From: Hondaea fermentalgiana | Taxonomy: Eukaryota > Sar > Bigyra > Thraustochytrida > Thraustochytriidae | Assembly: GCA_014084085.1 (NCBI GenBank) | Contig: NPFB01000038.1 | Span: 1,759-65,758 of the forward strand | DNA length: 64,000 nt | Direction: 5' to 3' | In this document: one piece after another, positions 13,954 through 47,977 of the stretch | Position numbering within the stretch: the first letter of the stretch is position 1 | How the letters are laid out: every line of letters begins with the position of its first letter | Translations under genes and position numbers: made by a program | Notes under the pieces: model-generated | Told to the model about the DNA's origin: nothing | The model's input: only the letters and a program-made list of their open reading frames with translations | Database searches by the model: none

Positions 13954-14053
13954 NNNNNNNNNNNNNNNNNNNNNNNNNNNNNNNNNNNNNNNNNNNNNNN
14001 NNNNNNNNNNNNNNNNNNNNNNNNNNNNNNNNNNNNNNNNNNNNNNNNNNNNN
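13954..14053. other. Assembly gap of 100 N inside a C-rich minisatellite
   Basis: Exactly 100 N, a conventional scaffold placeholder. The flanks (about 13924-13953 and 14054-14093) are imperfect repeats of a CCCGC/CCCCG unit, so the true length of the missing sequence is unknown. Confidence 0.95.
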
Positions 14054-31496: not shown

Positions 31497-32209
31497 TGAT
31501 GAGATGTTTGCAAGTTCAAATAAAACTACATTTCGTCGAAACGAGGTCTCTCTGGACAAGTACGCTTCGGCTCGAATTTCTGAGAGTAATAGCGATTCCA
31601 AAAAAGAAAACAACAGCCTTCAATGAGATCCTCCAAAATCTTCCAGCAACCCCGCCCCCGAATGATCAGCTCCACATTCACGCAACTACATTTCAGTCCA
31701 TCCGTCCTAAAGGCCATCCACTCGCTCAACTTCTCTCTCCCGCTCTCAGACGGTTGGCATCCAGTTACGTGGCTGTCGGTAAACGTCAATATTCGGGCGC
31801 TAACATGGGCGGTTCGGGCGCGCTCTCAGGCCGGCACAACAGAACCCGTTCAAGAGGTGCCTTGGCCCAGCATAGCTTGCGAGCGCGGCGCGGGCGGCGG
31901 CGAGGCGCGCCAGAGCGCGGGTCGGCGCGACGCTGCGCTGCGCGAACGGCGGCNNNNNNNNNNNNNNNNNNNNNNNNNNNNNNNNNNNNNNNNNNNNNNN
32001 NNNNNNNNNNNNNNNNNNNNNNNNNNNNNNNNNNNNNNNNNNNNNNNNNNNNNCCGCGAGCCGGGAGCGGCAGGCGCGGCAGGCGCCGCCGCGGCGAGGC
32101 AGACCTCTAACCACCGTCGCGGATCCGGCGGATCCGCGGCAAGGATCGCAGAGCGCGGCATCTACGAGCTCGACTCCGTCTGCACGGCACAGCCGCCCGC
32201 TTGAGCGAG
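31497..32209. other. Intergenic region with assembly gap, RAD54B upstream region
   Basis: No gene is supported. It is AT-rich up to about 31800, then extremely GC-rich around the N run. ORFs through the N run are artefacts. Confidence 0.6.
31954..32053. other. Assembly gap of 100 N
   Basis: Exactly 100 N, flanked by GCG/GGC-rich sequence; the real length is unknown. Confidence 0.95.
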
Positions 32210-35180: not shown

Positions 35181-36359
35181 TTACCAGAGCATCACTCCGG
35201 CCATGAGACAGGCGACGGCCTGCGCACCCTGCACGGGGTCCAGCATGCTAGAACCGCCTTCCTCGGCCGCAGCCTTGGCTGCGGTGCTTCCCACCGCCTC
35301 CTCCAAACGCGCGGTGAGTTCGCGATTGTGTTCCAAGGCGCGCTCGAGATCTCCAACGACACTGGCGTGCTGCTCGCGATCCTTGAGCGCAGCTTCCTGC
35401 GCCTCCCGGAGCGCCAACTCAAGCTGGCTCACTACGAGATACCGCGTGCGGAGCTCCTCAATCGAAGCATCCTGGTTCAAAGTCGGGCCATTGGCGTTCA
35501 GCTTGGCGCGCAATGCCTCCACCTCTTCTCGCAGCGATGACTCTGCAGTGCGATGCTGGTACAGCTTATCCTGCAACGCCTCGACACATGCGGCCGCCTC
35601 AGCATCATGCGCGGCCGTCGTGGCCCGCGCCTCCTCGAGAGCCTGCTCAAGCGCAATGACTCGATCGAGGGCTGCCTCCTCGCGCGCCAATGCAGCCTCC
35701 AGGAGCGGCTCCGTGGCAACAGGAGCAGCGACGGGCCCTGCACCGAAAGAGACACGCACGCGAGCACCGGACGATTGCTCGAGCTGCTCGCATGCGAGGA
35801 TCTTCTCGTGGTATGCGTCCTCCAAGATCTCGAGTCTCTCCTGCGCAGCGTCGAGCTCCGCCTGCAGACGAGCGCTCTCCTGCGTAGCGGCCTCGAGCCG
35901 TGCCTCAAGGTCGGCACGAGCCGACTCGTTCTCGGCGGTCCGCGTGGAATCGTTGGCGGCTGCACGGGCCTCGTCCTCGATGATCTTACGAAGTCTGCAT
36001 TCCCTCGCCAGGGCTGCGCGGGCCTCGTCGCGCTCCACCAGCGCGCGCTCCGTCTCCTCCAGGCGCGCCTGCGCGGCCTCGAGCTCGCGGCTCACGCGCA
36101 CACGCTCTTCGCGCTCAAGCTCGAGCTGCGCCTCCGCGTTCCGGACGCTGCCGACGCTGGTGCTCTCCACAGACACGCCGGCCTCCGTCTCCCCGTCGTG
36201 GCCGCCCTGCCGCGCCTCGCGCGCCGCGCCGTCCTCGCCCGCGCCCGCGCCCGCGCCGCGCAGCTTGGCCGCCTCGCGCCGCCGCCAAAACGCGCGCTGC
36301 CGCGCCGCCGCCACCAGCACCACGCTCGACGCCGCGCACCCGAACGCCGCCGCCTCCAT
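35181..36359 (-). CDS. Coiled-coil protein with hydrophobic N- and C-terminal segments
   Basis: The 392-residue product has a short hydrophobic segment (about 5-20) followed by a basic patch (R-A-F-W-R-R-R), like a signal anchor. A Gly/Ala-rich linker follows, then almost continuous Ala/Glu/Leu heptads from about 85 to 365, then a hydrophobic C-terminal end (A-V-A-C-L-M-A-G-V-M-L-W) that could be a tail anchor. It has no enzyme motif. It could be a membrane tether or golgin-like protein. The ATG at 36359 is the first in-frame ATG. A 513-residue Ser-rich ORF on the other strand is its shadow. The stop faces the RAD54B stop across 163 bp. Confidence 0.75.
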   Translation of the reverse strand: MEAAAFGCAASSVVLVAAARQRAFWRRREAAKLRGAGAGAGEDGAAREARQGGHDGETEAGVSVESTSVGSVRNAEAQLELEREERVRVSRELEAAQARLEETERALVERDEARAALARECRLRKIIEDEARAAANDSTRTAENESARADLEARLEAATQESARLQAELDAAQERLEILEDAYHEKILACEQLEQSSGARVRVSFGAGPVAAPVATEPLLEAALAREEAALDRVIALEQALEEARATTAAHDAEAAACVEALQDKLYQHRTAESSLREEVEALRAKLNANGPTLNQDASIEELRTRYLVVSQLELALREAQEAALKDREQHASVVGDLERALEHNRELTARLEEAVGSTAAKAAAEEGGSSMLDPVQGAQAVACLMAGVMLW

Positions 36360-37213
36360 CCTGCCGCGCCCGCCTGCCTGCCTGCCTCCTCGCCCCGCCC
36401 CGCGCTGCCCTGCCCTGCCTTGCACGGCTTTCTCTCTGCCGATGTTTGCGCTCTGCCGCGCCGTCTCCGCGTTGTCGGCGGCAATGATCGCCTTCCCCCC
36501 TCGGGCCCCCGATTCTGGAAAAGGGGTTGCTCAGAACACTAATTTTAGCGAGCTAGGGCTCCAGATTTTGGGGGCAAACACGTTAAACTTGCGGACCAGA
36601 GACTTGGATCTGGCACGGGCTAACAGTAAATGACTTGCGCGTGAGTCTGGGCATCCTAATTCAGGACATGTCGTTGCTAATTCGGATTTCAGAGCTGGTC
36701 GTGACGACCCGCCGGCATCATTTCTAGAACAGGCCGGACATTGATTTATTTTTGGTCTCGATGTGCTGCCCACAAAGTATGCAAATACTTGGTCACATTT
36801 CAAAAAAAAGAATAGGCGCTTCATTAAAATTGATACGTTTCGTTGGCAGCTGTTTCGTTGTTTACTTCGCCTTGCTTTCTTTTGTTTTTGGAGGCTAATG
36901 TAGGCTTCTGGCGACGATCGAATATTGGGCTTTGCAACTGCGAACCATGCGTCCTTCAAAAGTCGACTATCTCACTCTACGCATACGCCAACTGCGCCGA
37001 GGTATACCCAACTGTTACACTTGACCGGATGTTGCGTCCAACACCAATACTCAAGGTGATCGCCAAAATCATCGTGATCCCGCAGTCTTCTTCTTCTTCT
37101 TTTTCAAGTGCCTCTCGGTCCCGCGAAAAGACGAAGCAGCAGACTTGGTTGGAGTGCTTGGCGTCGTGCGCGAGAGACAAGGTCTGCGCTGCGCAGCGCT
37201 GCGTGTGGCAAGG
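36360..37213. other. Divergent intergenic region
   Basis: It lies between two divergent genes. It starts with a CCTG/CCCG-rich tract (about 36360-36425), the likely leader of the coiled-coil gene. The middle (36540-36960) is AT-richer with no accepted ORF. A run of TTCTTC lies near 37085-37100, before the small mitochondrial-type gene. Confidence 0.55.
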
Positions 37214-37669
37214 ATGCTTGCGCTTGGGCTGCGTGCCGCCGGCGTCACGGCGAGGCGAACGGCTGCGCCGAGCGGTGCACGACTCTTGAGCGCGGCAAGC
37301 GGCGGGAAACATCATGCCGTGGAGCGCGAGTTGCTGGACAGGGAGCAGCTGCGCAGACAACACAACACGCTGAGCGCACAGGACGCGGATGACGTGCCCT
37401 TTGCGGAATCGATTGATGACTACTTTGCCTCGCTCGAATGCAACGACAATGAAAAGAAGCTCATCACTGACTTCAAGGGCGCTGTCGAGAAGGCCGACAT
37501 TGAGGGCGCCGACCAAATCGCCAATGACTATGCGCTGTTGCTTGCGGCCACTCGCGAAAAGCTGCGTCTTACTGTCGAATGGAACGACACTGCAAAGCTT
37601 ACCGAGAAGGAACGCGTCAAGGCGACCGCCTCGCGTGTCGGTCTTGACGTCCCGAAGGAACTCGCCTGA
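37214..37669 (+). CDS. Small mitochondrial-type protein, function unknown
   Basis: The 151-residue product has a typical mitochondrial presequence: residues 1-31 are rich in Ala, Leu and Arg with no acidic residues, ending near A-R-L-L-S-A-A-S. The mature part is a compact, charged, mostly helical domain of about 115 residues without cysteines, containing D-D-V-P-F-A-E-S-I-D-D-Y-F and W-N-D-T-A-K-L-T-E-K-E. It resembles in size and composition small accessory subunits of mitochondrial complexes, but I cannot name it. The ATG at 37214 is the first in frame; the track extends upstream only through a TTG. Confidence 0.7.
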   Translation: MLALGLRAAGVTARRTAAPSGARLLSAASGGKHHAVERELLDREQLRRQHNTLSAQDADDVPFAESIDDYFASLECNDNEKKLITDFKGAVEKADIEGADQIANDYALLLAATREKLRLTVEWNDTAKLTEKERVKATASRVGLDVPKELA

Positions 37670-37997
37670 GCCGCGTGCAAGTCGAGAGCTTGAAACCAGT
37701 TTCTGGCTGTCGAACATCTCGCGACATCAATGGACGCAGATGTACATCTGCCCTGCGAATAGGGCGTTATGACTTTTTGTGTCTTACTATGCTGTGACCC
37801 ACTTTCCATTCTATCTCGCATGCGAGAAATAATCAACGAAAATTTTGCAGAAACATCCCTCTTCTAGAGGACCCTGCAGTTCTAGTGAAAAGTTTTCGCC
37901 GTGAAGCTTATCAGATATCGTTCACTCTCACTCACACTCAGTATTTTACACTCTCTCGCTGACTTGCATGCATGCTTCTTATTCATCCTAGCTAGGC
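37670..37997. other. Convergent 3' intergenic region
   Basis: About 330 bp between two convergent stops. It is AT-richer, with TCTCACTCACACTC-type short repeats near 37921-37955. No gene seen. Confidence 0.6.
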
Positions 37998-40900
37998 CTA
38001 CAGCTGGTTCTCAGCAATCGTGTCTTTGATCCTCTGTGCAAGTTCGGCAATCTCCGCATCAGTGGGCTCGACCTCGCTATGCATTGGGACGAAAAGTGGT
38101 TCTCCATTCCAACGAAGAAGAAATGGCCCCTTCCATTCGCTCGAGTCCGCCATGTCCTTGTCAAGCACGCATGGAATCACACGAACAGGTTTTTGACGGT
38201 TCATCGCGTAGTGGAACTCCATGCGACAATAGTCATCCTTCGAAAGCTCCACGTTCACCTTTTCCATGTATTCGCGCGTCACGAAGATGACGGTGGTCCG
38301 GGACTTGTCGATGCCATCCGTTATGGACCGATAAATTTCTGACCCGATGTCATTCGCATCAATCCAACACCGAATGCCACGCTCCGCCAGCTTTCGTTCG
38401 ACGGCCTTTACCTTATCATGTGATATATTTGCGGGACCCCACGCGTGAGAAAGAAAAGCATCATACTGGTATCCAGCGCACGCGACTGACTCTGAGTTCC
38501 CTCGAGCTTGAGACTCACTGAGCATTTGAGCCTGAGAAGTTCCATTCACGAACGGCGCAAAATCTTCAAGTGGTTTACATGACGATCGCGTTCGAATCGT
38601 GTTGCCCGCCAGAGGGTCTGCGAGGGATTCCGCAAGAGCACAAGACTCGTCGCTCTCGGTTCCGTCGGAGCTGACGAATAACTTCGGTCCTAACTTGCCC
38701 CTCATGAACGTTTCGTCAATTTCCTTCAGCTCCTTGCTCAACAATGCGAGAAGTGATGCCAGCGGGCGATCACGTCTGGCACTGCCAAAGCGAAAGATAG
38801 TTCGTCTCTGAGACACCTCCATGAGGCACTTCATACCGCCAAAATCAGCTCTCGCCACGTCCGCGAAGAGCTTTTCACTCACGGTCGCCACACCCTGAAA
38901 TTCCTGGAAAAGAAGAGCCACGAGACGCTGGAAGAAGCCCTTTGGCAAAAATTCGAAGTCGACGTAGGCAAGAGCAGAGTCACCGACCCATCTTCGTCCA
39001 TCTTCCTTGTCGTGTTCCGATGCAGCGCGCAAAAGACTCGGCACCAAAATTGTGTCCTTCTTGCCAGCGTCATCGCTGACCCAAGGGCTCGGACATGCCA
39101 ACAGTGTCGTCTCCATCAGTGATACCAAAAAGTCAACGGGATTGCCTTCCCACAAGAACTCCAGGAAAGCACGACTGGCGACGGCGTGAGATTTCCACCG
39201 ACGAAGTGCAGCATCGAGATGGGGAGGAAGGGCCGTGCGTTCTCCGGCTCCCGATCGTAACTTATTCATGTGCCTTCTCATGTGCTTTGCGCTTGGATCG
39301 CAAATGACGCGTGACAGATTTTTCAATAGCCACTGCGGTTGAATCACAACGACTTTGCACAGAGCCTCATTCTTGGAAAAGTACAAAAGCACGCCGAGCT
39401 CATGCAGATACTCGAGCATCTTCCTGACGTCCTTCTTGGCAACGAAACATTTCGTCACAGCAAGCGCCTCAACATCGTCAAATTGCATGTATGGATCGCT
39501 TTGTTGGAGCAATTGGTCCAGGCAGTAAGACCAACGAAGAGGAACCTTCTCCTTCACAAACGCCTTGTCGGCCACGGATCTTGTCAACTGATCCTTGAGA
39601 CGCGCAACGTGTCCGTCTACATCCTCGCGATCTTGATTGTTGATGGGAAAGAATTGAAGGAACTCCTCTTTCCAAATGTTCCTGTGAATCTTAGGGTCGC
39701 CATCCATTTCGTCAAAGATCCTCTCTTCCAGAGTCTCTTGGATTTCATGATGTTGATCAAGCTCTGGAACCTGGTCCAGGAATGTCCCAATCAGAGCAAC
39801 CTCGACGCCTGGCGCGTGCAATCGGATAGAGTCAAGCCAGAAACGAAGCGTCTGAATCGCGTCGTCTTGCGAGGCGAGCTTGGCAAGCCCTTCCTCGTCA
39901 AGCTTTTCTTTGAAGCGCTCCTTACCCAGCACCTCGCGCATGTCAAAAACCACAACATAGACGCCATACTGGGTCAGGAACAGGTGATGTAGCGCGTAAA
40001 AGACCTCCTGACCACCGTAGTCCCATATCGTAAAGCTGATCTCTTTTTCCTCCTTTCCGGCTTGCTCCTTGACACGAATGCGAAGCGGGGTGTTCACAGC
40101 TTTCGCAATTACCTCCTTGTCAAACTGGACTGATGGAGACTGCGGTGGAGGTGAAGGCACAGCGGAAGCACTATTGGCTGAATCCGCAGGTGGAGCAGCG
40201 CGTGGCGCCTTGGGAACGCTTCGCGCTGCGTCTTTCGATGACTGGGCCTCAGACTGATCCAGCTCTTCATGCTTTCGTTTGTTTCGGTACTTATGCTTTG
40301 CAAGTTGTTCGCCGAGATCGGCATCGCCAATGTTCTTTCGCTCCTTCCAGTCTCGTGTGTGCATGAGCATCAAATCTATTCCAATCGTTGAGACATGCTC
40401 GGGTACGAATGGCTGGTCCAGGAGCGTGCGGATCGTCGACGTCTTGCCTGCGGCTGCCTTGCCCACAACCATGAGCTTGGCACGCCCCCAGCGTACCTTT
40501 TGATCTGTCTTAAGCGCCTGAGCAGCTGTTTCGCTTAGCTCATTCAGCTCATCCTTGACAAGCTTAAGGCGAGAGCCAATACGATCAAAAATATCGGGAG
40601 ATGCATAGGGATAATGGCCAAGACTGTTCATCAATCACGTGAGTCGTCCTTGCATGATATTGACATCCTCCAGCCGAAAAGTGGGGAACGAACTTACGCT
40701 AGCTCCTGCAAGATGTTGTTGCTCTCGAGCGCTACGGCAAGAGCTTCAGCGCCTTCGTTTCCAATCCTACATCCAGTGAGACTATTTTCACGTGAAATAG
40801 TCAGCAATTGCATGGTACAATGACTCTGAGTCTGAGGTGTTGTCGGCAAACGTACTCGAGGGACTGAAGAGATGACTTGTTCTGCTCAAGCGCCTCTGCC

Positions 40901-43900
40901 AGCTTTTCGGCGCCTTCATCGTCGATAATGTTGTCCACAAGACTGAGAAAGATGAAAGATGACAATGCCGATCATTGCGTGATGGTGCGCACGTGTGTTA
41001 GAGAATTCATTTTGTCTTCGACCATTCTTGCATCCTGGCAATAACGTACTCAAGCTCCTCGAGTGTACTATTCTTAACGAGCGCCCCAGCCATGGCTTCA
41101 GCGCCATGTGGACCGATAAGGTTCTCAGAGAGTCTGCAGTCATTTGCAAAGAACCAAATTGGCAAAATCACGGAAAATTGAACGTTTTCAACGCCGTCTT
41201 CGTAAGTTACAATTTGCCTCTGATGCAAGGGCCTTTCCGAATCCAACGTACTTTAGCGACTGCAGAGAATTGTTCGCCGCGAGCGCTTTCGCAATCTCAT
41301 TCGCGCCGTCGTCCCCAATCGCATTGTCTTGAAGACTGTACGCGATAAGGGTTTTTTGTGAAATTATTGAACAGATGAGCAAGTGCTGGTCAGTTGTACA
41401 CAGTACCGACACCCTGACCCCGCCATGCGAACGTACTGTAGCGTCACGAGGGACTTGATCTGAGCGAGTGCCCCTGCCAGCGCAGAAGCGCCATCATCTC
41501 CGATGTTGTTGTTAGATATGCTGTGAATTGCGACACCAAGCGCGGGCCGGGAAATTATAGTTGATGCCCATGCTCGTCAGCTAAGCTCATCTTGCTCCTT
41601 TGGCCACGATAATAAGTACTTACTCCAGAAAGTGCAGCGTCGTGTTCCCCGTGAGAGCGCCCGCCAGCGATCTTGCGCCAGCCATACCGACTCTGTTCTT
41701 TGCGAGACTATGAAGATGAGGAGTGTTTTGATCGACATAGAGAGCCCACGAACATCCACAGTAGATCATATTACGACGAGTATCGAGCAATCGTTAGTCA
41801 TACTCGCTTGTTGAAAACCGCCATGACAATATAACTTACTCTAGCGCCTTTAGTGATTCGCTCTCGGCAAGCGCATTTGCTAGCTGCTTAGCGCCATCCC
41901 CCGTGATGTCGTTGCCACGAAATCTGCGTGTTTTTGCGTGATACGGATTCATGAATACGCGAGGAAAACCCACAAAGAGTCGTGAATGCATCTTCGTTAG
42001 TCCATGCTACTCCTTTCTTGCGCAATGCTCTCTCGCCAATACTTACTTCAGTGTGTGCAGCGACTTGTTCTTCAGAAGTGCGCCCGCCACCGCAACAGCG
42101 CCTACGTTGCCAATCCTGTTTCTTGCAATACTGCGTACCACAACAGGAGTTCGCATTTAATTTGGAAAGTGTTAGTCTCCTCACCCTCAACGTGCACCCG
42201 ATTGTTTTGGGTTCACTTACTCTAGGAACAACAGCGACTTATTCTCCTCAAGCGCTTTGGCCACATGCACAGCGCCATCATCACCAATAGCATTCCATCC
42301 CAGCCTGCGCTTGCAATTCGAGAAAACGCCACCAAAGTGCGCATGTTCAAAAAAGCCGTTTTGCCATACAAACTTGTCAGCCTTCTTCGAATCATACACG
42401 CCTCATTTTCGATACTGTAGTTCTTACTTTAGCATCTCCAGCACTTGAGACTTCACGAAAGCCTCCGCAATCTCCTTGGCGCCATCAGTGCTGATTCCAT
42501 TCTTCTGAAGACTGCGTTGGTTCGTAAAGAAAGATCGAAATACGAAGCACCGCGAGGAAGCCTGGTGGTTAGTCTCCTTGCTCAACTACAACGCTCTGTT
42601 TCTACGTACTCGAGAGAACACAGCATTGTATTCGCCGCGAGCGACCTCGCCATTGCCGCGGCGCCACCGTCACCGATACGGTTCCAGCCAAGACTGTGTT
42701 TGTGTAACAACGAGCAGCAAGTTACAAAGTACAGTGCCATGAGTTGCTTCATCGTCAGTTGTCGGAATTTCGCGCACTTTCCCGCCTCTCATGATCACCT
42801 ACTTGAGCGTCAATAGGGACTCGTTCTTCTCGAGCATATCCGCTACAGCCTTGGCGCCAAGGGGACCTATTTCGTCAGCCCCAAGACTGCGCTCATTGAA
42901 CCAATTGCGATTTCATGGCAAGTACGGAGCACCGCAATAACCCAGGTCAGTCTTTCTTTGTCTTTTGCAAAACGCTTTTAACCTTTCTCACCACATACTT
43001 TAAGTTCTGCAGCGACTTGTGCTCGGCAAGCGCGCATGCCACGGCCTCAGCACCACTATCGCCGATGCCATTCTTGGAAAGACTGTGAGGATGAAAGTGA
43101 TCACATCATATTGCGTAAGTTTGGTTTGTTCAAACAACAGGAACACTGTCTCTGTTATTCATCGTAGCTTTGAAAACGTACTTCAAAGAATGGAGCTGCG
43201 TATATTTCGCGAGGCTCTCCGCCATCTCCTTGGCGCCTCGTGGTCCAATGCCATCACCGGATCGACTATACTCATCGAAATAAAATATTTGAGTCAAAGG
43301 GAAGCAAGCACCAATGTCGACGATGGTGATTACGTGAAATTTCGCAGGACATCAGTTCACTTCAGTCGTACTTATGCGAAAATCTCAGCTCAACGTACTC
43401 CAATTCTTTCACAGCCTCAGGTTCGTTTTGCTTGGCAGTTCTGTAAGATTCGCAGACGTTGATGACAAGTTGGGCATAATTCCAATGGCGCATCGTTAAT
43501 TAATTGTTTCTGACTTCTCCTCCATGTTGAAACTATACATACCTGTTTTTCTTCAGCAGTGCGTCTATTTCACGCATTTTGTGTCTGCTGACATTGTTGC
43601 GATCAAGACTGCTCTCGTTTCAAAAATGGTGCAAACGTGTACGTAAATGACGAAGAGGGAGGATGCCATAGAGAATTGTTCGCGTTTTAATTAGTTCTCC
43701 TCGCTTCCCACATGCGGTTTTTCTTCCCTCGCTCCCAACTTACTTGAGCTTTTGCAGTGACGTGTTCTCCTTGAGCGCATTTGCCAGCGCTGTCGCGCCA
43801 TCATCGCCAACTTCGTTCCACTGGAGACTGCGATTGTGCATTTTATGTGGAAAGTGAAACAAAAAACATTCATGGCAGCATGATCGAAGGAAGAGAAGAA

Positions 43901-44970
43901 CAATCATAGCATCATGTATCGGGTTGGATGATNNNNNNNNNNNNNNNNNNNNNNNNNNNNNNNNNNNNNNNNNNNNNNNNNNNNNNNNNNNNNNNNNNNN
44001 NNNNNNNNNNNNNNNNNNNNNNNNNNNNNNNNTTGCGAGCTGGTCAGTCGTCTTCGTTCTTTGCAAGCTTTCTTTGCCTCACCATCACGCTACTCACTCA
44101 AGTTCCTGCAGCGACTTATTCTCCTTGAGCGCATTCGCCAGCGCTGTCGCGCCATCATCGCCAATTCGGTTGTCCCGAAGGCTGCGGTTGTGCATTTTAT
44201 GTGCAAAGTGAAACATAAAACATGCATGACAGCATGATCGATGGAAGAGAAGAACAATCATAGCATCATGTATCGGGTTGGATGATTTGTACCATTGCGA
44301 GCTGGTCAGTCGTCTTCGTTCTTTGCAAGCTTTCTTTGCCTCACCATTACACTACTTACGCAAGATCCTGCAGCGACGTGTTTTCCTTGAGCGCATTCGC
44401 CAGCGCTGTCGCGCCATGATCGCCAATTAGGTTCCTCGAAAGTCTGCGATTGTGCATTTCATGGACATAATGGGGAATCGGAAACCATGCATGGCAGCAT
44501 GATCGCATGTTCGAAGAAAGAGATGAAACAATCATAGCATCAGGTATCGGGTTGGGTGATTTGTACCATTGCAAGCTGGTCAGTCGTCTTCGTTCTTTGC
44601 AAGCTTTCTTTGCCTCACCATCACACTACTTACGCAAGCTTTTGCAGCGACGTGTTCTCCTTGAGCGCATTCGCCAGCGCTGTCACGCCATCGTCGCCAA
44701 ATTTGTTCCTCTGAAGACTGCGATTGTTCATTTCATGGGCAATGTGATCGGAAGAACGAGATCGTAAAGACATGACAAGGTTCGGGTCAGAATAATAACA
44801 ATGCATTGCAACGAACGCCAGATCTGGGCGTATCGGCAATTCGGAGTTGCTCGCTCAACTTACCTCAGCCAGGTTTCTCCATCTGACATTGCTCGAATTG
44901 CGTCGGCAATCGAATATGCCAGGTAGTTGAATCGGGACTGTTCCCATGATCGTGGAAAGGACTCGGCCAT
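37998..44970 (-). CDS. LRR - Roc - COR - TIR protein (Roco family), 22 exons
   Basis: Exons in transcript order: 44864-44970, 44634-44717, 44360-44443, 44098-44181, 43744-43827, 43543-43608, 43399-43440, 43182-43265, 42999-43082, 42803-42886, 42610-42693, 42428-42511, 42221-42304, 42047-42130, 41840-41923, 41624-41707, 41437-41520, 41252-41335, 41050-41133, 40856-40942, 40698-40781, 37998-40623. All introns are GT-AG and phase 2. Exons sum to 4356 nt, an exact 1451 codons plus stop. Exon 1 gives a 35-residue start from ATG 44970. Exons 2-21 give 19 ribonuclease-inhibitor-type LRRs (I/V-G-D-x-G-A core). The last exon encodes Roc (P-loop G-K-A-A-A-G-K-T 631-638, W-D-Y-G-G-Q 777-782, a ~60-residue Pro/charged insertion between them), COR, and a C-terminal TIR (from Y-D-A-F-L-S-H-A-W at 1297). 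The place of the NADase glutamate appears to be Gly1337. Function is unknown; a sensor or GTPase-switch role is inference. A gap lies in intron 4. Confidence 0.9.
43744..44717 (-). repeat. Recent tandem duplications of an LRR exon plus its intron (~262-bp unit)
   Basis: Exons at 43744, 44098, 44360 and 44634 are near-identical, and so are the introns between them (shared landmarks AACAATCATAGCATCA, GTATCGGGTTGG, GCTGGTCAGTCGTCTTCG). The unit is 262 bp from 44098 to 44360 and 274 bp from 44360 to 44634. The interval 43744-44098 is 354 bp including the 100 N, which becomes 262 if the N run stands for about 8 bases. Confidence 0.92.
43933..44032. other. Assembly gap of 100 N inside the tandem LRR exon array
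   Basis: The left flank ends in GGGTTGGATGAT and the right flank starts TTGCGAGCTGG. In the intact neighbouring intron these same words (near 44275-44303) are separated by only TTGTACCA or so. The gap therefore replaces either ~8 bases or those 8 bases plus whole 262-bp repeat units collapsed in assembly. Confidence 0.92.
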
Positions 44971-45658
44971 TTGTAGCGAACAGGAAGTGAGTGAATGAAA
45001 GGCAGGCAAGCGTCTGGCCTGCAACTCGCGGGCTCTGCAAGTCGTTTGAGTAAGTCTGCAGGCTTTTTGGCAAGGTGAGTTCGAGCTCGTATACTACTTG
45101 TCTTCCGTGTGCACGTGGAGTCGCGCCTTGGTTCACGATCACGTGTGTATAGGCTTAAACGCCGCGGAGCTAGACGCGGAAGAGTGTGAGCGTCGGACGA
45201 CAGCCCGGCGGGCGATCCGGTGAGCCCCCGTCAATCTCGCGCGCGCAAGAGGGCTGCTTGATGAACGCCGCTGCCGCCGCGAACGCTGCAGCTTTGCGAG
45301 TCCGATTTGATCGCTGATTGCGTCGGCAGGTTGTCTGATTTTGCCTATTTCGCCGATTTCTCCGGGAGAAAGCATACTAGTATATATAAAGAAAATTCGC
45401 AAACACCCACAGAAAGCAGCCCGCCATGGCCGGTTTGTGTAATATCCGAGAAATTGGCATCTGAAGAGCAAGGAGATTGTCTGGAGAGCCTTGACATCGT
45501 CACAAGGAATGAAGATTTTGCAGAGAGCGCCATCAGGAGACGCGATGTCTCTGAGTTATAAAGCTTCCACGGCTTTGGGCCTGTATTTTTGGAATCGCCG
45601 CGGAAACGATAAAGAACGTAGCCCCAAATCTAAACATGGAAAAATCATTTTTTCTCTT
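44971..45658. other. Upstream region of the LRR-Roc-COR-TIR gene
   Basis: Between the kinesin stop and the LRR-Roc ATG. It contains GC-rich DNA at 45160-45300 and, on the plus strand, TATATATAAA at 45381-45390, which has no credible gene behind it. No gene seen. Confidence 0.55.
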
Positions 45659-47977
45659 TTATGAGTCCTGGGGTGTAGGGCTCAATCGATCCGCATTGGA
45701 AGGCGCATCCGCTACGCGTGCTCTATTTTTCATGTTGCGTAGCTTTTGCTTGACAAAGGAGGCGTGTTTTCGAAATTTGGCGTCCCGTGCGACCTGGTCT
45801 TTGTCGTCCTCCTCATCTCGTTTTCGGTCCTCCTCGAGACGCTCGAGCTCGCGTTGCGCCTTGGCCGCAATCCATTGTTGCAGCTTTTTGTGTTTCGCCA
45901 GCTCCTTTTGCTTCTCACGTAGACTTGACGCAAGACTTCGTGTTCCATTCGTGGACCCATCCACGCCGCCGCCAGCACCAAGGCCAAGGCCAACGCCGCT
46001 GCCGACATTTCTCTCCTCTTGTGCGAGGCTACGCCCTTGTGCGGTCATAGACTTCGTCTTTTTCTTGTTGGACTTATTCGGAGAAGCACATTCATTCGGC
46101 GTCTTGCTTCCGAGAGGCCCCGAGTGCTCTACTCGATCTCCCATGCCTCGCAAGCGATACGTCGCAGGGGCACCCGTTGCAGGCGCTCGAGGCGAGAGAG
46201 AAATAGGGCCATTGTATGCGGGCCCGCCATTGTTGTTTCCAGAACCACCGCTGCCGCCACCAAGAGTCGAGCAACTTGCGAGATGTCGCTTGAACTCGGT
46301 CTGAAACTCTTCCTCCTCCACTTCAAAGGCAAAAAACTTGTCAGCACAGTGTTTCAAGCTTGCAAGTGTCGCGCGTAGCCTTTTATTCTCCGATTTGACA
46401 CCTGCAGAGGCCGCTGCTGCCTCATTTTTGGCTACTGCTATTGCAGCTTGCATCTTGCGAGGGGTCGCTCCGGCCTCCATTTCATCCCGTAGCCTTCGAT
46501 TCTCCTGCTCCAGACGAGCGATGCTCTCTTTCGCGTCAAAGAGTTCCTTTGCGATCGCAAACGAGGTCGAAGCATTGCCCTTTGCAGCCGCGCTCGGCAG
46601 CGCTAATGCGTGCGAGTTTGTTCCTGGCGAGGGCACTGCGGAGCCATCCATGAGAGCTAATGGCGTCGCTACCTGGGCGGAGGCCTGCCAATCCTGGTCT
46701 TGAAGATGCGAAACGACGAGCGCCCCCTGAGCAGCGAGATTGCTCTTGTTATCATAGGGGATTCCATTGGCATCCAGAAGCTGACGCAGGTGTCCAATCT
46801 CAGCCTCAAGACGGAGAACAAGTTCAAGCGATACTTCGCGCGTCTCCACGACGTGGGCATGTTGCATGACGCGTTTGGCGCGATCGGCAAACTTTAACGT
46901 TGAGATCGACTCCTCTACATATGCTTCTGATGGGGACAAAGTCGCAATGATGCACGTTCGCGAATTGCCACCAAGCGCGTCCTGCAAAATACGCGTGAGT
47001 TTTGAGTCGCGGAACGGCACATGCGTAGCCTTGGGGTTTGTGAGCGCTGCGATGCATCGTCCCAGCGTGTGCAGGCTTGTGTTGATGTTTGTCAGCTCTG
47101 AGACATGGCCTTTGTCGAGCTGCTCCATTGTGCCCCACTTTTCTGAACCTGCCAAATCTACGAGATTGAGCTTGGCACGCACGACTCGACCGCTTCGTTT
47201 CTTGCGCCGCTCCACGCACATTTGAAAAATGGAATGACTTCGACTACTTACGTCATTCATTTGCGTTTGCCGACATGCGCGTTGCTCATCGCCCTGCTCG
47301 AGCAGAGCCATGCACTCGTGTAAAGAGGTTACGGCGTATTCGCTCAACCCGACCACGTAAATCTCCTTTGTTTCTGTGTTCTCGTGCACCTGTAGCGGAC
47401 GCTCTCGACCGGGGTCGCGTAACAGGTCGAATGGTTGGTCGTTGTAAATCTGCATAAAGCTACAGTAAATGGAAACCTCCTCGTCCTCCTGGTCTTCGCT
47501 CTGGCTTCTCCCGCTACGCGAACGTTCCGACTCTGCGATAGCAAGAACTTCCCGCACGGCGCGAGGAATCACGCCCATGCTGCGTGAGGTTTCTTCAGCA
47601 CCATAAATGGAAAGGTCATCTTCAGGACCAAACATGGTGAATGACTTGCCTGATCCAGTCTGTCCATACGCAAAGATGGTGCTGTTGAATCCCTGAACAA
47701 CGGATTCTGCTGCGAAGCGGACTTTGGCATAAACTTCTTCCTGGCTGCTATCCAAGTCAAAGACGTGGTCAAAACGCGCATTGACATTGTGAAGATCAGT
47801 TTCTACGCGGACGGTCGACCCATCTTCGCTCACCTCTGTCACTGCGGGCGCGGCAATCTCTCTGCCCAGCAATGGTCGAATCCGAATAAAGACCTTTATG
47901 TTCTCATGACATGCGCCATTGCTTAGTGCTGCGTTGCCTTCGGCACGCACGACGAGCGCGTCTTCGCCCGTCGCCAT
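45659..47977 (-). CDS. Kinesin with N-terminal motor
   Basis: A microtubule motor of 772 residues. The motor domain spans about 26-375: I-K-V-F-I-R-I-R-P near the start, P-loop G-Q-T-G-S-G-K-S at 105-112, switch I N-D-V-S-S-R-S-H-S, switch II D-L-A-G-S-E, then N-I-N-x-S-L and R-D-S-K-L-T-R-I-L. It is followed by a neck and short coiled coils (about 395-420 and 500-545), Gly/Ser-rich linkers, and a charged helical C-terminus (about 690-755). A G-R-C-I-A-A-L-T motif replaces the usual G-N-V-I-x-A-L; I cannot assign the subfamily. The ATG at 47977 is followed by a short Ala-rich head. It has the same orientation as the LRR-Roc gene but lies 689 bp away and is independent. Confidence 0.93.
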   Translation of the reverse strand: MATGEDALVVRAEGNAALSNGACHENIKVFIRIRPLLGREIAAPAVTEVSEDGSTVRVETDLHNVNARFDHVFDLDSSQEEVYAKVRFAAESVVQGFNSTIFAYGQTGSGKSFTMFGPEDDLSIYGAEETSRSMGVIPRAVREVLAIAESERSRSGRSQSEDQEDEEVSIYCSFMQIYNDQPFDLLRDPGRERPLQVHENTETKEIYVVGLSEYAVTSLHECMALLEQGDEQRACRQTQMNDVSSRSHSIFQMCVERRKKRSGRVVRAKLNLVDLAGSEKWGTMEQLDKGHVSELTNINTSLHTLGRCIAALTNPKATHVPFRDSKLTRILQDALGGNSRTCIIATLSPSEAYVEESISTLKFADRAKRVMQHAHVVETREVSLELVLRLEAEIGHLRQLLDANGIPYDNKSNLAAQGALVVSHLQDQDWQASAQVATPLALMDGSAVPSPGTNSHALALPSAAAKGNASTSFAIAKELFDAKESIARLEQENRRLRDEMEAGATPRKMQAAIAVAKNEAAAASAGVKSENKRLRATLASLKHCADKFFAFEVEEEEFQTEFKRHLASCSTLGGGSGGSGNNNGGPAYNGPISLSPRAPATGAPATYRLRGMGDRVEHSGPLGSKTPNECASPNKSNKKKTKSMTAQGRSLAQEERNVGSGVGLGLGAGGGVDGSTNGTRSLASSLREKQKELAKHKKLQQWIAAKAQRELERLEEDRKRDEEDDKDQVARDAKFRKHASFVKQKLRNMKNRARVADAPSNADRLSPTPQDS

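What the first reader, a model, noticed from the sequence alone, without database searches (positions are those of the whole stretch)
37998..44970. A 22-exon LRR-Roc-COR-TIR gene hidden as one ORF plus thousands of bases of apparent non-coding DNA
ORF calling sees only the last exon (Roc-COR-TIR). Splice sites read by eye add 21 upstream exons, all GT-AG and all phase 2, that encode 19 ribonuclease-inhibitor-type LRRs and a start exon. The exon sum is exactly 1451 codons plus stop, a strong internal check. Roco proteins with LRRs are known (LRRK-type, bacterial Roco), and TIR domains are known in immune receptors. Their union in one protist protein looks like an NLR-analogue: LRR sensor, Roc-COR switch, TIR output. 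The immune role is inference.
Basis: partly seen in the sequence, partly recalled or inferred. Interest (0 to 1): 0.92.

Follow-up and report, generated by a model that had tools for sequence, protein, structure and literature searches.

The report
LRR-ROCO-TIR receptor-like gene, thraustochytrid
In a single-celled marine protist, a gene made of about twenty small interchangeable exons encodes a protein that joins a recognition horseshoe, a GTPase switch and a TIR signalling domain; it belongs to a family of about thirty related genes and looks like an immune-type sensor.

Summary
On the minus strand, 44970-37998, 22 exons join into one 1451-codon frame; every intron is GT-AG and phase 2. The organism is the thraustochytrid Hondaea fermentalgiana (a deposited protein is 100% identical over 78% of the last exon). 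That deposited model already joins 10 of the 20 inner exons to Roc-COR, but drops or truncates the rest and the TIR domain.

Independent support comes from paralogs. A profile built only from window exons finds 110 LRR segments at 13 other COR loci; 98 have AG and GT at the exact predicted positions (0.13% at shifted positions). At 8 of 12 loci the terminal exon also opens with an LRR-cap-like sequence in the same phase (by eye).

The genome holds 33 COR matches, 30 followed by TIR. Sixteen genes carry LRRs, at least 6 WD40 repeats, one actin. The presumed TIR catalytic glutamate is present in 25 of 27 aligned rows, the window's included.

The architecture is not unique: eight of eight bacterial ORFs scanned are LRR-Roc-COR-TIR, and brown-algal ROCOs are published with one LRR per phase-2 exon. 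The repeat count is uncertain (100-N gap in the array). One gene across exons 7-8 is likely, not proven. Immune function and NAD+ cleavage are inference. No transcript or structure evidence was obtained.

The parts
44864..44970 (-). Exon 1 (107 nt, ATG at 44970, phase out 2): short N-terminal module ..IADAIRAMSDGETWLR
   Evidence: similar start exon in paralog C133 (MTTSNEDVIADAIRRMSEGETYLR) and in P0002; same start in deposited P0001
44634..44717 (-). Exon 2, LRR (84 nt)
44360..44443 (-). Exon 3, LRR (84 nt)
44098..44181 (-). Exon 4, LRR (84 nt); absent from deposited model
43933..44032 (.). Assembly gap of exactly 100 N in intron 4, inside near-identical repeat units; may hide whole LRR exons
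   Evidence: N runs; units e3 and e4 match on both sides of the gap
43744..43827 (-). Exon 5, LRR (84 nt)
43543..43608 (-). Exon 6, irregular LRR resembling a solenoid cap (66 nt: LDRNNVSRHKMREIDALLKKN)
   Evidence: homologous stretch in C133 and C28; resembles, by eye, caps at the start of terminal exons
43399..43440 (-). Exon 7, irregular (42 nt); if not spliced the frame meets a stop 12 codons on, about 43363
   Evidence: homologous exon is longer in C133 and C28
43182..43265 (-). Exon 8, LRR (84 nt), first repeat of the second array
42999..43082 (-). Exon 9, LRR (84 nt)
42803..42886 (-). Exon 10, LRR (84 nt)
42610..42693 (-). Exon 11, LRR (84 nt)
42428..42511 (-). Exon 12, LRR (84 nt)
42221..42304 (-). 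Exon 13, LRR (84 nt)
42047..42130 (-). Exon 14, LRR (84 nt)
41840..41923 (-). Exon 15, LRR (84 nt)
41624..41707 (-). Exon 16, LRR (84 nt)
41437..41520 (-). Exon 17, LRR (84 nt)
41252..41335 (-). Exon 18, LRR (84 nt)
41050..41133 (-). Exon 19, LRR (84 nt)
40856..40942 (-). Exon 20, LRR (87 nt)
40698..40781 (-). Exon 21, LRR (84 nt), last repeat
37998..40623 (-). Exon 22, terminal exon: LRR cap, Roc, COR, TIR, stop
   Evidence: LRR-cap-like opening in the same phase at 8 of 12 paralogous loci examined (by eye)
40440..40463 (-). Roc P-loop GKAAAGKT
   Evidence: Lys present in 48 of 53 aligned rows; coordinates by arithmetic from the translation
40005..40022 (-). Roc G3 motif DYGGQE
   Evidence: Asp in 53 of 53 rows; coordinates by arithmetic from the translation
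39273..39542 (-). COR-A domain (Pfam match, residues 361-450 of the terminal exon)
38154..38456 (-). TIR_2 domain (Pfam match, residues 723-823 of the terminal exon)
38217..38219 (-). Presumed TIR catalytic glutamate (CRMEF), residue 802 of the terminal exon
   Evidence: Conserved column; catalytic role recalled from TIR NADases and assigned by motif spacing, register against solved TIRs uncertain

Best explanation
The locus is one intron-rich gene for a ROCO-family protein with the order (N to C): short leader, LRR array 1 (4 or more repeats plus cap-like segment), LRR array 2 (14 repeats plus cap), Roc GTPase, COR, TIR. It most likely works as a cytosolic sensor. The LRR horseshoe binds a microbial or damage ligand and releases restraint on Roc-COR. 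Roc-COR changes nucleotide or dimer state and brings the C-terminal TIR domains together. The assembled TIRs then cleave NAD+ and signal or kill the cell. The repertoire diversifies because each LRR is a symmetric phase-2 exon that can be duplicated, lost or perhaps skipped without shifting the frame. Shown here (from sequence): exon structure, domain order, intact Roc and TIR motifs, family size, LRR copy-number variation, sensor swap. Inferred: ligand sensing, GTP-controlled switching, NADase activity, immune purpose.
For: Exon chain without stops and Pfam matches. 98 of 110 LRR segments (15 bits or more) at 13 other COR loci have AG|exon|GT at the exact predicted positions, against 0.13% at shifted positions. 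LRR-cap-like openings of the terminal exon in the same phase at 8 of 12 other loci examined, judged by eye. A single uninterrupted ORF with LRR, Roc, COR (weak) and TIR in the same genome (L029). 30 of 33 COR matches are followed by TIR on the same strand within 2.5 kb. TIR Glu in 25 of 27 aligned genome rows and in 23 of 27 non-gap rows of the database alignment (the two sets share Hondaea members). Sensor swap on the same core: WD40 in 6 genes (5 by Pfam, 1 by pattern), actin in 1. N-terminal array length differs between copies: 4 plus gap in the window, 9 in C133. No NB-ARC match in the genome at E 0.001; 8 NACHT matches (6 over cut-off), none within 6 kb of a TIR match. Weak TIR matches to PADLOC models PDC-S66 (36 bits) and ThsB (26 bits).
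Against: No transcript evidence was available, and the deposited gene model disagrees on ten inner exons and on the 3' end. Relatives P0032 (named Aplanochytrium stocchinoi) and P0038 (an MMETSP transcript product, organism not shown) have LRR-Roc-COR with no TIR listed, and P0013 has LRR-Roc-COR without a TIR match. Concave-face LRR positions are variable (mean entropy 3.34 bits against 1.66 for all other positions), but other positions such as 5 and 16 reach 3.5, so this is no proof of ligand-driven selection. The closest solved TIRs by sequence are weak matches (E 0.004 to 0.25), and the phmmer alignment to Cat1 has a two-residue insertion just before the glutamate, so its register is uncertain. 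ROCO proteins elsewhere do non-immune work (established knowledge). No structure model could be made (queue full at every try).
Confidence: 0.6

Rival explanations
1. Two neighbouring genes: exons 1-7 form an LRR-only gene ending in its own cap (stop at about 43363), and exons 8-22 form a separate LRR-Roc-COR-TIR gene.
For: Exon 6 looks, by eye, like the solenoid caps that open the terminal exons; reading through the exon 7 donor gives a stop 12 codons on.
Against: Donor GTACGTT at exon 7 and an AG acceptor at exon 8 are kept in the copies at C133 and C28. In C133 the same intron is 132 nt with no in-frame stop, so an LRR-only gene would not end there. The exon 8 frame has no ATG between its last upstream stop and exon 8 in the window. 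The deposited model also joins across this point, though it skips exons 6-8. Both copies run out soon after exon 9 (C133 at its contig end, C28 in N), so they do not show the whole gene.
Confidence: 0.2
2. The terminal ORF is expressed alone, from the ATG near 40631, as a Roc-COR-TIR protein; the LRR exons are relics.
For: That ATG is in frame with the 878-aa ORF.
Against: The ORF would begin at the acceptor and within an LRR cap. 18 LRR exons stay open with intact splice sites; the paralogs show the same arrangement, and P0002, P0003, P0004 and P0006 list all four domains.
Confidence: 0.05
3. The TIR domain is a non-enzymatic assembly module, and the protein signals through scaffolding, possibly in stress or development rather than immunity.
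For: Many animal TIRs are adaptors (established knowledge). Teng et al. report that many brown-algal ROCO genes respond to stresses other than infection (PMC11378527 abstract).
Against: The presumed catalytic Glu is kept in most family members. The sequence matches to solved TIRs include Cat1 (weak), recalled as an NADase.
Confidence: 0.3
4. The gene is a decaying pseudogene of an expanding family.
For: The family has damaged members (C38:50404 loses frame in the TIR, C13 has Gln for Glu).
Against: 1451 codons open, all splice sites and G motifs intact.
Confidence: 0.07

Closest known systems
Brown-algal LRR-ROCO genes (Teng et al. 2024, PMC11378527; Zambounis et al. 2012, known here only through citations)
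   Same: Stramenopile ROCO genes; one LRR per small exon; exons in phase 2; exon shuffling and varying repeat number; proposed immune receptors.
   Different: Brown-algal exons are 72 bp (23-residue LRR) and the only architecture reported is LRR-ROC-COR, without TIR. Here exons are 84 nt (28-residue ribonuclease-inhibitor-like LRR) with a C-terminal TIR, in a unicellular species with 33 COR matches, where that paper gives four or fewer ROCOs for the unicellular SAR relatives it surveyed.
Bacterial LRR-Roc-COR-TIR proteins (Nostoc, Rufibacter, MAGs of Planctomycetota and others)
   Same: Same domain order.
   Different: Mainly another LRR class (LRR_8/LRR_4/LRR_14 rather than LRR_6), clear COR-B match, uninterrupted ORFs; the bacterial group lies on one side of a 100/97 branch, away from the Hondaea rows. 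I saw no description of this architecture in the listings, though Teng et al. note TIR domains in ROCOs of various organisms.
Plant TIR-NB-ARC-LRR receptors
   Same: LRR sensor, nucleotide switch and TIR output in one cytosolic protein (recalled).
   Different: Roc-COR GTPase instead of NB-ARC; reversed order (LRR N-terminal, TIR C-terminal); no NB-ARC match in this genome at E 0.001 in a six-frame search.
LRRK/Roco proteins (LRRK2, bacterial Roco)
   Same: LRR followed by Roc-COR; best PDB sequence matches are 3dpu ('Rab family protein', recalled as a bacterial Roco) and, lower, LRRK2.
   Different: TIR in place of a kinase or nothing after COR.

Membership tests
ROCO family | Roc GTPase domain with P-loop and G3 | tested here: met
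   Pfam Roc 63.4 bits over cut-off 27; GKAAAGKT, DYGGQE
ROCO family | COR domain directly after Roc | tested here: met
   COR-A 55.7 bits over cut-off 35.3, residues 361-450; COR-B not matched by Pfam
Enzymatic TIR domains (NADases) | TIR domain by profile | tested here: met
   TIR_2 56.9 bits over cut-off 28
Enzymatic TIR domains (NADases) | Conserved catalytic glutamate | tested here: inconclusive
   E802 in CRMEF is a conserved column, 25 of 27 genome rows aligned; but its identity with the catalytic Glu rests on motif spacing and recall, and the register in the Cat1 alignment is uncertain
Enzymatic TIR domains (NADases) | NAD+ cleavage | not testable with these tools
   Needs protein
NLR receptors (NB-ARC/NACHT STAND ATPases) | NB-ARC or NACHT switch | tested here: not met
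   Pfam scan shows Roc-COR and lists no NB-ARC or NACHT at E 0.01; works like, but is not, an NLR
Brown-algal-type shuffling LRR-ROCO | One LRR per symmetric phase-2 exon | tested here: met
Brown-algal-type shuffling LRR-ROCO | 72-bp exons, LRR-ROC-COR only | tested here: not met
   84-nt exons and a TIR against PMC11378527 section text
Brown-algal-type shuffling LRR-ROCO | Alternative splicing of LRR exons | not testable with these tools
   No transcripts held
Bacterial LRR-Roc-COR-TIR | Same clade of Roc-COR | tested here: not met
   Tree of 61 rows: bacterial group (8 titled loci plus 4 database proteins that I grouped with them by resemblance) on one side of a 100/97 branch, Hondaea rows outside it; the Hondaea C75 gene sits apart on a long branch

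The most novel reading that the evidence does not exclude
A single-celled stramenopile has an NLR-like receptor repertoire built on ROCO GTPases instead of NB-ARC: about thirty genes share a Roc-COR-TIR signalling core while the N-terminal sensor is swapped between exon-shuffled LRR arrays, WD40 propellers and an actin-like domain. LRR diversity is created by gain and loss of frame-neutral one-repeat exons, and possibly by splicing choice, in parallel with brown algae.
Probability: 0.4. Interest if true: 0.82.

Novelty: new variant of a known kind. Interest (0 to 1): 0.66.

Why it matters
It suggests that receptor repertoires with swappable sensors and TIR output can be built on a GTPase switch in a unicellular eukaryote, which bears on how such receptors arose. 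It departs from the published picture that unicellular SAR species hold four or fewer ROCO genes (those surveyed in PMC11378527). The one-repeat-per-exon design, seen in brown algae with a different repeat length, makes it testable whether receptor diversity arises by exon duplication or by splicing. The deposited genome annotation hides much of this: this gene is cut off from its TIR domain and named as an NLRP protein.

Tried and rejected
TIR-only protein search (residues 712-874): 285 candidates, nothing at E 1e-5 or better; odd, since paralogs carry related TIRs, so it says little. Genome-contig scan with P0020: 13 stretches matched a pattern, no relative. Two-gene reading: kept as a rival (20%). 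Terminal ORF alone and pseudogene: judged unlikely. Idea that the architecture is unique to this protist: rejected after bacterial LRR-Roc-COR-TIR ORFs were found. Idea that concave LRR sites show positive selection: only an entropy ranking was done, not claimed. Loose motif patterns over 32 genome ORFs found a P-loop in 26, G3 in 27 and G4 in 10; some ORFs are cut by contig ends, gaps or introns and the patterns were narrow. NCBIfam gave only sub-cut-off matches. Papers searched for ROCO passages without useful text: PMC7075850, PMC7159879, PMC8195603, PMC13142454.

Results against the reading: of 30 fetched genome stretches, 16 gave no LRR segment of 15 bits; some of these carry WD40 or actin, one (L030) is only an extension of L016, others are cut by contig ends or unresolved. 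12 of 110 LRR segments lacked AG/GT at the predicted place; intronless L029 (3 segments, 0 exact) was set aside before that count (98 of 113 with it). Of the 13 LRR-exon loci, L003 was left out of the cap check; of the 12 examined, L004, L007 and L026 were unclear and L002 showed none. Tree: three rows gave no core (C15, C198, P0060) and one more of 65 was removed by the script's filter.
Full report
What was checked. The region 37500-45300 was read and the ORFs of 36000-47000 listed in six frames. The chain exists as described: 22 exons, start at 44970, stop ending at 37998, 21 GT-AG introns of 74-270 nt (the longest includes 100 N), all in phase 2, 1451 codons. Pfam finds LRR_6 in the joined upstream part (281 bits) and Roc, COR-A and TIR_2 in the terminal exon, all over cut-off.

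Is it more than chance? A profile built from 17 of the window's LRR exons scores 18 segments in this gene at 23.2 bits or more, while the best score elsewhere in the 64-kb window is 7.4. As the profile was trained on this gene, the independent test is elsewhere. The genome has 33 COR-A matches. I fetched 30 stretches holding 31 of the 32 COR matches outside the window; the C14 match (82-aa frame) was not fetched. With the intronless L029 set aside, the profile found 110 LRR segments of 15 bits or more in 13 of these stretches, and 98 of them have AG and GT at exactly the predicted exon ends; the rate at positions shifted by 1-60 bases is 0.13%. At 8 of 12 loci examined, one of the in-phase acceptors after the last LRR exon (the first listed in seven, the second in L025) is followed by an LRR-cap-like sequence, judged by eye (for example ..ISPDILARI....ITDNALVDQI..), as in the window (..ASPDIFDRI..). 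So the LRR solenoid's cap appears to be encoded by the Roc exon, which fits splicing between them and argues against separate genes.

Organism and annotation. Protein P0001 of Hondaea fermentalgiana is 100% identical to the terminal exon over 78% of its length. P0001 starts at the same ATG and holds inner exons 2, 3, 5, 9, 12, 13, 15, 17, 18 and 19 intact, part of exon 21, and exon 22 up to ..NTIRTRSS, without TIR. Paralogs P0002, P0003, P0004 and P0006 list LRR_6, Roc, COR and TIR.

Anatomy of the array. Exons 2-5 are young repeats: the exon-plus-intron units e2, e3 and e4 align at 85% (e2-e3, 268 bases) and 93-94% (e3-e4, 139 and 105 bases); e5 is similar over its exon only. Two related loci, C133 and C28, repeat the array, the irregular exons 6-7 and exons 8-9 in the same order, and the start exon (whole in C133, its second half matched in C28). 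C133 ends at its contig end and C28 runs into N soon after exon 9. C133 has nine LRR exons before exon 6 at a period of about 264 bases, two of them with identical peptides; the window has four plus a 100-N gap. The gap falls within intron 4 where 8 bases of the neighbouring unit are missing, so extra units may be hidden there. Exon 6 resembles the caps seen at terminal exons, so the gene may carry two LRR solenoids in tandem, perhaps from an old fusion or internal duplication (inference).

Family. 30 of 33 COR matches have a TIR match downstream on the same strand within 2.5 kb; 43 of 73 TIR matches lie elsewhere (counts are lower bounds by the tool's note). LRR exons precede COR at 15 genes counting the window (L003 holds two), and one further gene (L029) carries LRR, Roc, weak COR and TIR in one frame. 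WD40 repeats lie in the COR frame in 6 genes, five confirmed by Pfam and one by pattern, and an actin domain in one, whose TIR match is below cut-off. In a tree of 61 Roc-COR cores, LRR-exon genes fall into two clades and 13 rows, including the WD40 genes, form a third. The bacterial group is on one side of a branch of support 100/97. In the genome rows that could be aligned, the glutamate at the CRMEF position is E in 25 of 27, Q in one (C13, which has no TIR_2 match), lost by a broken frame in one (C38:50404). Five further ORFs were not caught by the pattern; in four of them an E at the like place is visible in the printed sequence, the fifth reads N. The nearest solved TIRs by sequence are 3h16 and Cat1 (E 0.004 and 0.016); in the Cat1 alignment a two-residue insertion precedes the glutamate, so the register is uncertain.

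Elsewhere. A database protein without a named source (P0064) led to 32 loci with bacterial record titles. I listed ORFs for the 11 whose match runs well into the TIR part and scanned eight of these; all eight have LRR, Roc, COR-A, COR-B and TIR: Nostoc foliaceum, Rufibacter latericius, and MAGs of Planctomycetota (two), Calditrichia, SAR324, Anammoxibacter and Bacteroidetes. In the other 21 loci the match does not show a TIR. PADLOC models PDC-S66 and ThsB match the window's TIR weakly (36 and 26 bits). The genome has no NB-ARC match at E 0.001 and eight NACHT matches, none within 6 kb of a TIR match; these are six-frame searches that ignore introns.

Literature. In PMC11378527 I read the abstract, two results sections and the first of two parts of the discussion: brown-algal ROCO genes have one LRR per 72-bp phase-2 exon, shuffling and alternative splicing, only LRR-ROC-COR, and unicellular SAR relatives are said to have four or fewer ROCOs; it mentions TPR-ROCO-TIR in Chondrus. 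From PMC9334734 I saw passages on Aplysia proteins with ROC, COR and TIR; from PMC4104024 a figure legend naming TIR among domains of Trichoplax ROC-COR proteins; from PMC4053784 one passage on an Acanthamoeba LRR-ROCO. Searches for thraustochytrid plus TIR domain, and Aurantiochytrium plus leucine-rich repeat plus innate immunity, gave no paper; a search for Hondaea fermentalgiana listed 30 of 32 papers, none with a title on ROCO, TIR or immunity (listing only). Zambounis et al. 2012 was not held.

Conclusion. The gene model is well supported (my estimate: about 0.9 for LRR exons spliced to Roc-COR-TIR, about 0.75 for a single gene from exon 1 to 22). A receptor-like role by analogy with NLRs is the best explanation; NAD+ cleavage and immunity are inferred. 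It is a new variant of a known kind.

Noticed in passing
G000 (own genome), e.g. L011, L016, L019, L023, L024: A second branch of the same family carries WD40 repeats in front of Roc-COR-TIR within one ORF.
   Followed up: partly
L020:957-6227: A 1757-aa ORF joins an actin domain (283 bits) to Roc-COR and a TIR match below cut-off.
   Followed up: no
L029:904-5247: An intronless 1448-aa LRR-Roc-COR-TIR ORF on a long separate branch with P0056 and P0057.
   Followed up: partly
G000, 43 of 73 TIR matches: Most TIR matches of this genome lie outside COR genes; their architectures were not examined.
   Followed up: no
L016 (C38:50404) and L005 (C13): A ROCO-TIR copy whose frame is lost inside the TIR domain, and one with Gln at the presumed catalytic position: possibly decaying members.
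   Followed up: no
window 13954-14053, 31954-32053, 43933-44032: Three runs of exactly 100 N: assembly gaps of nominal size.
   Followed up: partly
window 45659-47977 (-): Neighbouring 772-aa ORF looks like a kinesin motor (by eye, no search).
   Followed up: no
L033-L064: Bacterial LRR-Roc-COR proteins, at least eight with TIR, appear in several phyla and are candidates for defence genes; neighbourhoods were not examined.
   Followed up: partly
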